Source: Xanthostigma xanthostigma
Lineage: Eukaryota > Arthropoda > Insecta > Raphidioptera > Raphidiidae
NCBI GenBank assembly: GCA_963575645.1
Contig: OY754466.1
Span: 2,148,001 to 2,212,000 of the forward strand
Direction of reading: 5' to 3'
DNA: 64,000 nucleotides
Shown here: piece by piece, positions 2,401 through 41,360 of the stretch
Layout of the letters: each line of letters starts with the position of its first letter
Numbering within the stretch: the stretch's first letter is position 1
Notes under the pieces: model-generated
What the model saw: the letters and a program-made list of their open reading frames with translations, nothing else
Told to the model about the DNA's origin: nothing
Databases searched by the model: none
Program-made: the position numbers and the translations under genes

Positions 2401-2501
2401 CGTGCGGCATTGTCGCACTAGTTGCACAATATACTATTCTTTTGTTTTAAATACGGTTCCACGAAGTTCGCAACATGAGCATTCAATATTATTATACTGT
2501 A

Positions 2502-2680
2502 ACTAATAAACAATGAGAAAGATTTAATAAATACTTGCAATATTATATACGAAATCAATCTGAAGAAATCCAATTGCAGTATAATTATTTCACTGAAATA
2601 GTGAAAGCATAATAATATTAAACGAATATTATCGTCATAATATTTTTTTTTTTAGAAGGCTTATATATAAGAAAAATTTA
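2502..2680 (-). repeat. inverted arm capping the 384-bp array
   Basis: This is the reverse complement of the segment running from AAATTTTTCTTATATATAAG through GATTTCGTATATAATATTGC to the TTTATTAGTT motif in each array unit. With the first direct unit it forms an arm of about 180 bp. The head-to-head then tandem arrangement is reminiscent of Penelope-like element insertions, but no reverse transcriptase or hammerhead core was found. Confidence 0.7.
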
Positions 2681-2841
2681 ATTTATTAAATCTTTCTCAT
2701 TGTTTATTAGTTACATCAGCATGTCCGGCTAATTAGAGAAAGTCAACACTCTTGTAGTGTTGTTATTAAAATTATTAGCTCTCGCAGGTAGTGGATTCTG
2801 CGGTGCATTGTGTTATATATAAGAGAAATCATGAATTAACT

Positions 2842-2917
2842 GTCGTGGGCACTGTAGAGTAATGCAACTCAGCCAACGCGAAATTGGTTGTTTCGGGTTC
2901 AAGTCCCGACAGTGACA
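2842..2917 (+). other. tRNA-like sequence, first of six in the array
   Basis: The 76-nt segment has a strong B box (GGTTCAAGTCC, 2896-2906) and a T arm TCGGG/CCCGA. The acceptor stem GTCGTGG/CAGTGAC pairs at 6 of 7 positions counting G-U. An anticodon arm GCCAA/TTGGT encloses a CGCGAAA loop, which would read CGA (serine type) but lacks U33. The A box is weak. Copies lie at 3226-3301, 3610-3685, 3994-4069, 4378-4453 and 4762-4837. It is probably a tRNA-derived pol III promoter region rather than a working tRNA. Confidence 0.55.
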
Positions 2918-4985
2918 TTTAAATTTTTCTTATATATAAGCCTTCTAAAAAAAATATTATGACGATAATATTCGTTTAATATTATTATGCTTTCACTATT
3001 TCAGTGAAATAATTATACTGCAATTGGATTTCTTCAGATTGATTTCGTATATAATATTGCAAGTATTTATTAAATCTTTCTCATTGTTTATTAGTTACAT
3101 CAGCATGTCCGGCTAATTAGAGAAAGTCAACACTCTTGTAGTGTTGTTATTAAAATTATTAGCTCTCGCAGGTAGTGGATTCTGCGGTGCATTGTGTTAT
3201 ATATAAGAGAAATCATGAATTAACTGTCGTGGGCACTGTAGAGTAATGCAACTCAGCCAACGCGAAATTGGTTGTTTCGGGTTCAAGTCCCGACAGTGAC
3301 ATTTAAATTTTTCTTATATATAAGCCTTCTAAAAAAAATATTATGACGATAATATTCGTTTAATATTATTATGCTTTCACTATTTCAGTGAAATAATTAT
3401 ACTGCAATTGGATTTCTTCAGATTGATTTCGTATATAATATTGCAAGTATTTATTAAATCTTTCTCATTGTTTATTAGTTACATCAGCATGTCCGGCTAA
3501 TTAGAGAAAGTCAACACTCTTGTAGTGTTGTTATTAAAATTATTAGCTCTCGCAGGTAGTGGATTCTGCGGTGCATTGTGTTATATATAAGAGAAATCAT
3601 GAATTAACTGTCGTGGGCACTGTAGAGTAATGCAACTCAGCCAACGCGAAATTGGTTGTTTCGGGTTCAAGTCCCGACAGTGACATTTAAATTTTTCTTA
3701 TATATAAGCCTTCTAAAAAAAATATTATGACGATAATATTCGTTTAATATTATTATGCTTTCACTATTTCAGTGAAATAATTATACTGCAATTGGATTTC
3801 TTCAGATTGATTTCGTATATAATATTGCAAGTATTTATTAAATCTTTCTCATTGTTTATTAGTTACATCAGCATGTCCGGCTAATTAGAGAAAGTCAACA
3901 CTCTTGTAGTGTTGTTATTAAAATTATTAGCTCTCGCAGGTAGTGGATTCTGCGGTGCATTGTGTTATATATAAGAGAAATCATGAATTAACTGTCGTGG
4001 GCACTGTAGAGTAATGCAACTCAGCCAACGCGAAATTGGTTGTTTCGGGTTCAAGTCCCGACAGTGACATTTAAATTTTTCTTATATATAAGCCTTCTAA
4101 AAAAAATATTATGACGATAATATTCGTTTAATATTATTATGCTTTCACTATTTCAGTGAAATAATTATACTGCAATTGGATTTCTTCAGATTGATTTCGT
4201 ATATAATATTGCAAGTATTTATTAAATCTTTCTCATTGTTTATTAGTTACATCAGCATGTCCGGCTAATTAGAGAAAGTCAACACTCTTGTAGTGTTGTT
4301 ATTAAAATTATTAGCTCTCGCAGGTAGTGGATTCTGCGGTGCATTGTGTTATATATAAGAGAAATCATGAATTAACTGTCGTGGGCACTGTAGAGTAATG
4401 CAACTCAGCCAACGCGAAATTGGTTGTTTCGGGTTCAAGTCCCGACAGTGACATTTAAATTTTTCTTATATATAAGCCTTCTAAAAAAAATATTATGACG
4501 ATAATATTCGTTTAATATTATTATGCTTTCACTATTTCAGTGAAATAATTATACTGCAATTGGATTTCTTCAGATTGATTTCGTATATAATATTGCAAGT
4601 ATTTATTAAATCTTTCTCATTGTTTATTAGTTACATCAGCATGTCCGGCTAATTAGAGAAAGTCAACACTCTTGTAGTGTTGTTATTAAAATTATTAGCT
4701 CTCGCAGGTAGTGGATTCTGCGGTGCATTGTGTTATATATAAGAGAAATCATGAATTAACTGTCGTGGGCACTGTAGAGTAATGCAACTCAGCCAACGCG
4801 AAATTGGTTGTTTCGGGTTCAAGTCCCGACAGTGACATTTAAATTTTTCTTATATATAAGCCTTCTAAAAAAAATATTATGACGATAATATTCGTTTAAT
4901 ATTATTATGCTTTCACTATTTCAGTGAAATAATTATACTGCAATTGGATTTCTTCAGATTGATTTCGTATTTATTATACTGTATT

Positions 4986-33425: not shown

Positions 33426-34028
33426 ATAATTTTTATATAAATAAAATTATCGACCAATTTTTCAGACAATATATTAACAAAAAAATATATAATTAATACA
33501 TTAACGTTTCAATCCGGATTTGGACCTTCTTCAGAACTGATCTAAAAAATATAAGAAAAAATAATAACCTATTATTTTTTCATTATTTTGATAATAACAA
33601 AAATATTAAGAGCACTGTGGTTTGAATCTAATAAAAAATAGAGAATAGTTACTTCTTACCACAACAAGTTTATTAGTGGATGTACATTTCGAGAGCTATG
33701 CTCTCATCTTCAGCAATACACTAAACTGATGAGAGCATAGCTCTCGAAATGTACATCCACTAATAAACTTGTTGTGGTAAGAAGTAACTATTCTCTATTT
33801 TTTATTTTGATAATCATTAATAATTTTGAAAGATTTTATAAAAAGCTAATTAGATTTTAAATATTAATTATTTTTATATTTTTTAGATCAGTTCTGAAGA
33901 AGGTCCAAATCCGGATCGAAACGTTAATGTATTAATTATATATTTTTTCGTTAATATATTGTCTGAAAAATTGGTCGATAATTTTATTTATTGAAGAGTT
34001 CTAATCAGATGTTAATCAAAGATTAATA
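33426..34028. mobile_element. foldback family B, copy 1, with a nested perfect hairpin
   Basis: Outer arms run 33440-33553 and 33875-33991, with inner motif CTTCTTCAGAACTGATCTAA and outer motif TTTTTCAGACAATATATTAA. The right end GAAGAGTTCTAATCAGATG matches the fragment nested in Helitron copy 3. Other copies are at 52575, 54954 and 58455. A separate hairpin is inserted in the loop. Confidence 0.75.
33631..33805. repeat. perfect hairpin, 78-bp arms, 19-nt loop
   Basis: The arms 33631-33708 and 33728-33805 are exact reverse complements as read base by base. The stem includes TTTCGAGAGCTATGCTCTCA. It lies in the loop of the foldback element and is unrelated to it. No open frame. Confidence 0.9.
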
Positions 34029-40330: not shown

Positions 40331-41360
40331 ATTTATATAATTAGTGAATTTTTATATTCACTCATATAATTAGTGAATTTTTATATTCACTAATAATGCG
40401 AATATTCACTAAATTTGCATGGTACGATTCTAGCATTGACAGATGATATATTTTAATGGTCACTTATATAATTAGTGAACTTTTATATTCACTAATATTG
40501 CAAGTATTCATTAATTCTGCGTGGTACGATTCTAGCATTGACAGATGATATTTTTTAATGGTCACTTATATAATTAGTGAACTTTTATATTCACTAATAT
40601 TGCAAGTATTCACTAATTCTGCGTGGTACGATTCTAGCATTGACAGATGATATATTTTAATGGTCACTTATATAATTAGTGAATTTTTATATTCACTACT
40701 ATTGCAAGTATTCACTAATTTTGCATGGTACGATTCTAGCATTGACAGATGATATATTTTAATGGTCACTTATATAATTAGTGAATTTTTATATTCACTA
40801 CTATTGCAAGTATTCACTAATTTTGCATGGTACGATTCTAGCATTGACAGATGATATATTTTAATAGTCAGTTATATAATTTGTGAACTTTTATATTCAC
40901 TACTATTGCAAGTATTCACTAATTTTTCATGGTACGATTCTAGCATTGACAGATGATATATTTTAATAGTCAGTTATATAATTTGTGAACTTTTATATTC
41001 ACTACTATTGCAAGTATTCACTAATTTTGCATGGTACGATTCTAGCATTGACAGATGATATATTTTAATGGTCAGTTATACAATTAGTGAATTTTTATAT
41101 TCACTACTATTGCAAGTATTCACTAATTTTGCATGGTACGATTCTAGCATTGACAGATGATATATTTAAATGGTCAGTTATATAATTAGTGAATTTTTAT
41201 ATTCACTACTATTGCAAGTATTCACTAATTTTGCATGGTACGATTCTAGCATTGACAGATGATATATTTTAATGGTCAGTTATATAATTTGTGAACTTTT
41301 ATAGTCACTAATATTGCGAGTATTCATTAATTTTGCATGGTACGATTCTAGCATTGATAA
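40331..41360 (+). repeat. minisatellite, ten 102-bp units
   Basis: GCATTGACAG-type landmarks at 40433, 40535, 40637, 40739, 40841, 40943, 41045, 41147, 41249 and 41351 give a constant 102-bp period. Each unit holds a dyad TAGTGAA...TTCACTA around an AT-rich core and the constant TGGTACGATTCTAGCATTGA. Units differ by scattered substitutions but not by length. The unit length is divisible by three, yet stops occur in all frames. Confidence 0.9.

What the first reader, a model, noticed from the sequence alone, without database searches (positions are those of the whole stretch)
2489..4980. Tandem array of 384-bp tRNA-like units with an inverted cap and a 13-bp flanking duplication
Six units repeat with an exact 384-bp period and no visible base change. 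Each unit holds a tRNA-like block with a strong B box. The left side is an inverted partial unit and the right side stops mid-unit. TTATTATACTGTA flanks the whole, as if a pre-formed multimer integrated. This looks like neither an ordinary SINE nor an ordinary satellite. A model worth testing is a small RNA amplified as a circle or concatemer and inserted by a Penelope-like or LINE machinery, similar to animal retrozymes but with a pol III tRNA-like promoter instead of a ribozyme. I searched both strands for a hammerhead core and did not find one.
Basis: partly seen in the sequence, partly recalled or inferred. Interest (0 to 1): 0.78.

Follow-up and report, generated by a model that had tools for sequence, protein, structure and literature searches.

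The report
Penelope-mobilised RNA-circle arrays without ribozyme
In this insect genome a 384-base RNA with a tRNA-like part seems to have been copied round and round, probably as a circle, and pasted into chromosomes by a Penelope-type retrotransposon's enzyme, and no self-cutting ribozyme of the kind such RNA circles normally use was found in it.

Summary
In detail: a 2.5-kb insert (window 2489-4983) with a 13-bp target duplication, a short inverted arm, and six exact 384-bp units, each with a tRNA-like block.

It belongs to a dispersed family. In the 40 best loci all 65 outward ends are sense 3' ends at one of two unit sites about 42 nt apart, A (u207-217) or B (u252-259). All 25 two-armed arrays pair one A with one B. 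Duplications of 9 bp or more occur in 33 of 40, against 2.9% of mismatched flanks.

Penelope-like elements (PLEs) in the same genome show this anatomy. The offset matches the published PLE "tail", the two internal start sites of PLE reverse transcription (PMC11167929).

Private variants and A-tract lengths are shared across both arms of an array but differ between arrays. Each array was copied from one monomer, most simply a circle.

No hammerhead was found in the unit. Best reading: a retrozyme-like, ribozyme-less element mobilised by a PLE. Not shown: whether the circle is RNA, how it forms, or any Pol III role.

The parts
2489..2501 (.). left copy of the 13-bp target-site duplication TTATTATACTGTA
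2498..2681 (-). inverted arm, partial unit u258 to u78; outer end is site B (u252-259); first bases TGTA are microhomology with the duplication; A-tract A11
2681..4970 (+). direct arm of about six 384-bp units, u224 to site A; outer end is site A (zone u207-217), running into the right duplication by microhomology
4971..4983 (.). right copy of the 13-bp target-site duplication
2848..2917 (+). tRNA-like block, unit 1
   Evidence: ARAGORN
3232..3301 (+). tRNA-like block (u7-u76), Rfam tRNA 42.5 bits; no U33, shortened D loop, perfect GWTCRANNC B box (motif recalled)
3616..3685 (+). tRNA-like block, Rfam tRNA 42.5 bits
4000..4069 (+). tRNA-like block
4384..4453 (+). tRNA-like block
4768..4837 (+). 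tRNA-like block
3308..3312 (+). T5 run (u83-87), the only run of four or more T in the unit; would act as a Pol III terminator if Pol III initiates at the tRNA-like block
3432..3442 (+). site A (u207-217) inside an internal unit: reverse-transcription start zone inferred from 38 array ends
3477..3484 (+). site B (u252-259) inside an internal unit: second start zone inferred from 27 array ends

Best explanation
The array is one insertion of a non-autonomous, retrozyme-like retroelement mobilised in trans by a Penelope-like element. SHOWN by sequence: a dispersed family; target duplications of mostly 9-16 bp; arms that always have sense 3' ends outward; ends confined to two unit sites A and B about 42 nt apart; two-armed copies always pairing A with B; variants private to an array shared by all its units on both arms; PLEs with RT and GIY-YIG domains in the same genome with the same two-armed anatomy. 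INFERRED: a 384-nt sense RNA circle is bound by PLE protein, probably a dimer. Each protein copy cuts one strand of an AT-rich target with a stagger of about 12 bp and starts cDNA inside the circle, one strand from A and the other from B. Each reverse transcriptase rolls round the same circle for a fraction of a turn up to about 9 turns. The two cDNAs join, often at short overlaps some of which are palindromic, giving head-to-head arms between duplications. How the circle is made without a hammerhead is unknown; processing at the tRNA-like block by host tRNA enzymes and ligation is the guess I rank first.
For: 65 of 65 outward ends at A (38) or B (27), 25 of 25 two-armed arrays A+B, none with both 5' ends outward. 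Seven further loci seen only in a capped listing agree, 3 of 3 two-armed (a match reaching the query end at u252 may be B or may continue). Duplications of 9 bp or more in 33 of 40 against 2.9% of 1560 mismatched flank pairs; empty sites in satellite. Monomer template: L018 u379T>A in 12 of 12 covering units of both arms, L022 three marks in 14 of 14, L036 u378A>C in both arms; outside the A-tract, variants in the 22 of 40 arrays examined were either in all covering units or in one. A-tract identical in 69.4% of within-array pairs against 13.6% permuted, maximum 26.4% of 10,000 (29 arrays, 133 units); modal tract equal between arms in 12 of 16 arrays against 2.6 permuted, never reached in 20,000. 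PLE partner: L056 is a 782-aa ORF with RVT_1 and GIY-YIG above cut-off in a two-armed array with a 15-bp duplication and a 37-nt A/B offset. F2 PLEs: 13 of 14 two-armed copies pair an A-zone end with a match reaching B. A purified PLE cuts and extends both strands of AT-rich DNA and starts at two adjacent internal RNA sites that match the 30-40 bp genomic tail (PMC11167929). The sense circle folds to -93.7 kcal/mol against -69.1 (sd 5.2, minimum -83.0) for 100 shuffles; the antisense to -73.3.
Against: No RNA data; a small DNA circle transcribed round and round would leave the same homogeneous units. Homogenisation after insertion cannot be excluded for single arms. In 4 of 16 arrays the modal A-tract differs between arms, and the first unfiltered version of that test was not significant because of spurious matches. 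The F2 exception at C13:16975843/16979283 reads A+A in the listing. Similarity of the unit's A/B module to the F2 PLE module is only suggestive: best in register, tied with one antisense rotation, of 768 rotations, but 59 of 2000 shuffles and 9 of 428 window pieces reach the score; the F1 module ranks 77 of 768. The 40 loci are the best-scoring of 972 candidates, so young copies are over-represented. 7 of 40 loci lack a duplication of 9 bp or more.
Confidence: 0.8

Rival explanations
1. DNA-circle version: recombination inside an array frees a 384-bp DNA circle, which is transcribed repeatedly into a homogeneous concatemer; the PLE then reverse-transcribes this linear RNA from A and B.
For: Gives the same array-wide private variants; needs no RNA-circularising step and no ribozyme; the unit carries a promoter-like tRNA block.
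Against: The T5 run after the tRNA-like block would stop Pol III; needs a fresh DNA circle for each private variant; the sense RNA's strong circular fold is not explained.
Confidence: 0.17
2. LINE (APE or RLE) target-primed insertion with ordinary twin priming of a multimeric tRNA-derived SINE transcript.
For: Twin priming also gives inverted arms with both 3' ends outward, and duplications of 10-16 bp are LINE-like (recalled).
Against: No oligo-A or other 3' tail at the ends; both strands start at two fixed internal sites, 65 of 65; the offset and pairing are those of PLEs in the same genome.
Confidence: 0.04
3. Ordinary satellite spread or amplified by unequal crossing-over.
For: Exact head-to-tail units; post-insertion expansion would homogenise one arm.
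Against: Target duplications in 33 of 40 with fixed ends, dispersed short arrays, variants shared between inverted arms, empty sites.
Confidence: 0.02
4. A conventional animal retrozyme whose ribozyme I failed to recognise, of a divergent hammerhead or another class.
For: Same size range, tandem state, low GC and stable circular fold as animal retrozymes (PMC7229834). Rfam scans are insensitive here: cmscan did not report the PLE hammerheads of L056 at E up to 0.5.
Against: cmscan with E up to 10 shows no ribozyme. A motif scan that recovers the PLE hammerheads of L056 (3), L057, L058 and L060 finds none in the unit; relaxed to one core mismatch it still finds none on either strand.
Confidence: 0.15

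Closest known systems
Animal (non-LTR) retrozymes, Cervera and de la Pena 2020 (PMC7229834; parts 1-3 of 6 and passages seen)
   Same: Non-coding tandem units of 170-400 nt, AT-rich, dispersed, highly self-paired circular fold, co-existing with PLEs; the authors name PLEs a strong candidate for their mobilisation.
   Different: Retrozymes are defined by a type I hammerhead; none found here. A tRNA-like block is present. The passages seen do not describe the paired A/B ends, two arms or one-monomer arrays.
Penelope/Poseidon PLEs and their 'tail' (PMC11167929, parts 1-2 of 4 and passages; PMC3846280, passages)
   Same: Two-armed head-to-head copies, target duplications, an optional 30-40 bp tail on one of the inverted repeats, AT-rich targets, start at two adjacent internal RNA sites on both strands.
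   Different: The 384-nt unit is too short and has no annotated RT or GIY-YIG; no hammerhead found. Only the insertion anatomy is PLE.
tRNA-derived SINEs (recalled)
   Same: tRNA-like head with B box, non-autonomous retrotransposition.
   Different: Multimeric with inverted arms, no 3' tail repeat, start at internal sites, units joined seamlessly, Pol III stop inside the unit.

Membership tests
Animal retrozyme | type I hammerhead in the unit | tested here: not met
   weak negative for other ribozyme classes because cmscan also missed PLE hammerheads
Animal retrozyme | short dispersed tandem units, 170-400 nt, low GC, self-paired circle | tested here: met
Animal retrozyme | circular RNA of unit length in tissue | not testable with these tools
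   no RNA data; indirect support from array-wide private variants
PLE-type insertion | target duplication of about 8-16 bp | tested here: met
   33 of 40 at 9 bp or more; empty sites
PLE-type insertion | 30-40 bp tail present at one end: two start sites | tested here: met
   A/B offset about 42 nt, 25 of 25 pairs A+B; host PLEs 37 nt in F1 and 13 of 14 in F2
PLE-type insertion | matching cis sequence to a resident PLE | tested here: inconclusive
   F2 module best in register of 768 rotations, tied once, but shuffles reach the score in 59 of 2000
PLE (autonomous) | ORF with RT and GIY-YIG | tested here: not met
   the unit is 384 bp, too short for the 782-aa protein of resident PLE L056
tRNA-derived SINE | tRNA-related head | tested here: met
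   Rfam tRNA 42.5 bits
tRNA-derived SINE | Pol III transcription of the whole element | tested here: inconclusive
   T5 at u83-87, inside the unit, argues against; transcription itself not testable
Satellite DNA | unflanked tandem blocks without insertion signature | tested here: not met

The most novel reading that the evidence does not exclude
A circular-RNA retroelement that has dispensed with a ribozyme: array transcripts are cut once per unit at the tRNA-like block by host tRNA-processing enzymes and closed by a host ligase, and a PLE dimer then copies the same circle from both strands of the target, one from A and one from B. This would be a host-enzyme-made RNA circle with its own life cycle, and the two-site rule would be the in-vivo footprint of a PLE dimer.
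Probability: 0.3. Interest if true: 0.88.

Novelty: new variant of a known kind. Interest (0 to 1): 0.74.

Why it matters
Which machinery mobilises animal retrozymes has been left open, with PLEs named only as a strong candidate (PMC7229834, passages), and the two internal start sites of PLE reverse transcription are known from one protein in vitro (PMC11167929). This family gives many natural insertions in which both can be read: every sampled end falls on one of two sites, both strands use different sites, and each array derives from one monomer. It shows that a small RNA without a detectable hammerhead can go through what looks like the same route, so a ribozyme may not be the only way to make a mobile RNA circle. 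It also predicts exact start positions that an in-vitro assay can test.

Tried and rejected
Rejected: satellite, LINE twin priming and SINE readings (reasons under rivals). A Rfam search for ribozymes in the unit (E up to 10), a hammerhead motif scan and a genome search with RF00163 (2 sub-threshold matches) gave no ribozyme for the unit; the Rfam results are weak because L056's PLE hammerheads were not reported either. Compensatory changes in the tRNA-like block: too little divergence and none convincing. Direct homology of the unit to the F1 PLE: none in register. To the F2 PLE: suggestive only. Other tandem arrays of the window were checked for flanking duplications: five by computation, no convincing one. 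A first A-tract permutation on unfiltered matches was not significant (4185 of 20,000) and was replaced by a filtered one. In one search I supplied array bounds by hand; for L032, L033, L037 and L039 I used the bounds because one search had chained in weak extra matches. Novelty searches: (one search found no paper). Among the titles and abstract starts listed I saw no ribozyme-less retrozyme; that is only a statement about those listings.

Full report
OBSERVATION. The insert spans 2489-4983. Its parts are a 13-bp duplication (TTATTATACTGTA), an inverted arm (u258 to u78), a direct arm of six 384-bp units with no internal difference, and the second duplication. Unit coordinates: u1 is window 3226. 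The tRNA-like block is u7-76 (Rfam tRNA 42.5 bits), and the only T run of four or more is u83-87.

FAMILY. The genome (623 Mb, 28 contigs) holds many relatives: 255 forward and 250 reverse matches of a 40-base module with at most 3 mismatches, none for the reversed control. The DNA search scored the best 40 of 972 candidates; I studied these 40 loci (39 fetched, plus the window). By eye the cytochrome oxidase ORFs of the mitochondrial contig look insect.

ENDS. In one search all 65 outward ends that are sense 3' ends fall at A (u207-217, 38) or B (u252-259, 27). 25 of 40 arrays are two-armed, head to head, and 25 of 25 have one A and one B. 15 are one-armed, with a variable 5' end. None has 5' ends outward on both sides. 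The class limits (18 and 15 of 384 positions) were set after seeing the ends. Seven more loci from a capped listing agree, with the limit that a match reaching the query end at u252 may continue.

TARGETS. Duplications of 9 bp or more (including microhomology with the insert) occur in 33 of 40 loci against 2.9% of 1560 mismatched flank pairs. The seven below that are L010, L020, L032, L035, L040, L042 and L047; L010 has a 12-bp duplication displaced by 22 bp. L012, L019 and L022 lie in the 165-bp satellite seen in L055; flanks joined with one duplication copy match satellite without a gap for L012 and L019, and with a best match of 2 gap positions for L022, while two copies leave gaps of 10-14.

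ONE MONOMER PER ARRAY. Over 22 of the 40 arrays, L018 has u379T>A in 12 of 12 covering units on both arms, L022 has three marks in 14 of 14, and L036 has u378A>C in both arms. u379T>A and u378A>C are in no other array examined; L022's marks are shared with L023 and L028, so they mark a subfamily. Other non-A-tract variants sit in single units. The A-tract is identical in 69.4% of within-array pairs (425 pairs, 29 arrays, 133 units) against 13.6% after permutation, maximum 26.4%. Between opposite arms it is identical in 129 of 200 pairs against 895 of 8353 between arrays, and the mode agrees in 12 of 16 arrays. The exceptions are W, L017, L018 and L024. A linear multi-unit template would carry the differences between its units along; end-to-end jumping between molecules would mix them. 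A monomer circle explains the data best. Homogenisation after insertion would have to act across inverted arms.

ARM JOINS. Inner 5' ends crowd into u39-116 (29 of 65, 20% expected; limits chosen after seeing the data), the tRNA-like block and the sequence just 3' of it, where a reverse transcriptase moving into a folded block would stall. 17 of 25 arm joins have overlaps of 1 bp or more and 7 have the same unit position on both arms. Of 11 longer overlaps checked, 3 (L013, L024, L036) are perfect palindromes and L037 is one in 14 of 15; others, such as L044 and L027, are not.

PENELOPE PARTNERS. GIY-YIG gives 37 matches in the genome. L056 holds a 782-aa ORF with RVT_1 and GIY-YIG above cut-off. 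It lies in a two-armed array with period 2719, a 100% identical palindrome of 3142 bp, a duplication TATAATCCTGTACTA, and one end 37 nt longer than the other. A small F1 copy inside the window has the same form. For the F2 family, 14 two-armed copies can be read from the 48 listed matches: 13 have one end in the A zone and one reaching B, and C13:16975843/16979283 reads A+A (the query ends at B). L057, L058 and L060 show the F2 ends directly. In PMC11167929 (parts 1-2 of 4) a purified PLE cuts and extends both strands of AT-rich DNA and starts at two adjacent internal RNA sites that match the genomic tail; the authors saw no difference of start site between strands in vitro. PMC3846280 (passages) describes the tail as optional on one of the inverted repeats. 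The paired use of A and B here therefore agrees with known PLE copies and adds a strict rule over many insertions of one small element.

CIS SEQUENCE. The F2 module aligns best to the unit exactly in register (tied with one antisense rotation, of 768), sharing TGGATTTCT before A, a TATATA-rich A zone and GCAAGT in the tail. Shuffles reach the score in 59 of 2000 and window pieces in 9 of 428, so this is a lead only. F1, F3 and F6 fit worse in register.

NO RIBOZYME FOUND. The hammerhead scan recovers the PLE hammerheads in L056 (3), L057, L058 and L060 and finds none in the unit, strict or relaxed, on either strand. cmscan to E 10 names no ribozyme, but cmscan did not report L056's hammerheads, so other classes are less well excluded. 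In PMC11167929 hammerhead mutants did not affect insertion in vitro, so PLE mobilisation without a ribozyme is plausible.

MECHANISM. Shown: ends, pairing, duplications, one monomer per array. Inferred: RNA circle, PLE protein in trans, one start per strand, rolling for up to about nine turns (longest arm 3590 bp, L011). Guess: the circle is closed by host tRNA enzymes acting at the tRNA-like block. Against a simple version, if both RNase P and tRNase Z cut, the block would be lost from the circle, yet the units keep it. The sense circle is far more stable than shuffles (-93.7 against -69.1, sd 5.2, n 100), the antisense less so (-73.3).

VERDICT. A new variant of a known kind: retrozyme-like and PLE-mobilised, without a detectable ribozyme.

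Noticed in passing
window 33583-33814: A 206-bp two-armed insertion of the F1 PLE tip (hammerhead included) with a 13-bp duplication TTATTTTGATAAT, one end B-like and the other A-like.
   Followed up: partly
window 33534 (-) and 33894 (+): Outward-facing hammerhead-like motifs of another PLE type (F3) on either side of the F1 insert, as if F1 had landed in a two-armed F3 copy.
   Followed up: partly
window 58582 (-): A further hammerhead-like motif (CTGAAGAAGATC...GGTCGAAACG) whose downstream module resembles F3 (alignment score 37).
   Followed up: partly
L044 1906-1996: An F1 PLE tip lies about 20 bp from the left end of a unit array; an F2 PLE copy lies about 600 bp from a unit array at C6:11086-11088 kb. 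Shared target preference is possible.
   Followed up: no
L055 1-9999 (contig C25): A 165-bp satellite, about 60 copies in the stretch, into which three unit arrays (L012, L019, L022) are inserted; an F2 PLE (L057/L058) is flanked by similar sequence by eye.
   Followed up: partly
G000:C13:16975843-16979381: An F2 PLE whose two outer ends both read as A in the listing: the one apparent exception to the A+B rule, or a B piece not listed.
   Followed up: no
L032 2842 (-) and L042 1604 (-): Two loci share a hammerhead-like motif (GATGAAAATATATTTTTCGAAACGTTGGCC), perhaps a further PLE family.
   Followed up: no
L048 and L050 (starts of contigs C1 and C5): Contig starts made of CCC/T6-rich short repeats rather than TTAGG.
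   Followed up: no
window 40358-41357: A 102-bp tandem repeat of 9.8 copies with no convincing flanking duplication.
   Followed up: partly
L056 and the genome search with RF00163: Rfam's hammerhead model misses the PLE hammerheads here, which carry an extra base after CUGANGA.
   Followed up: partly
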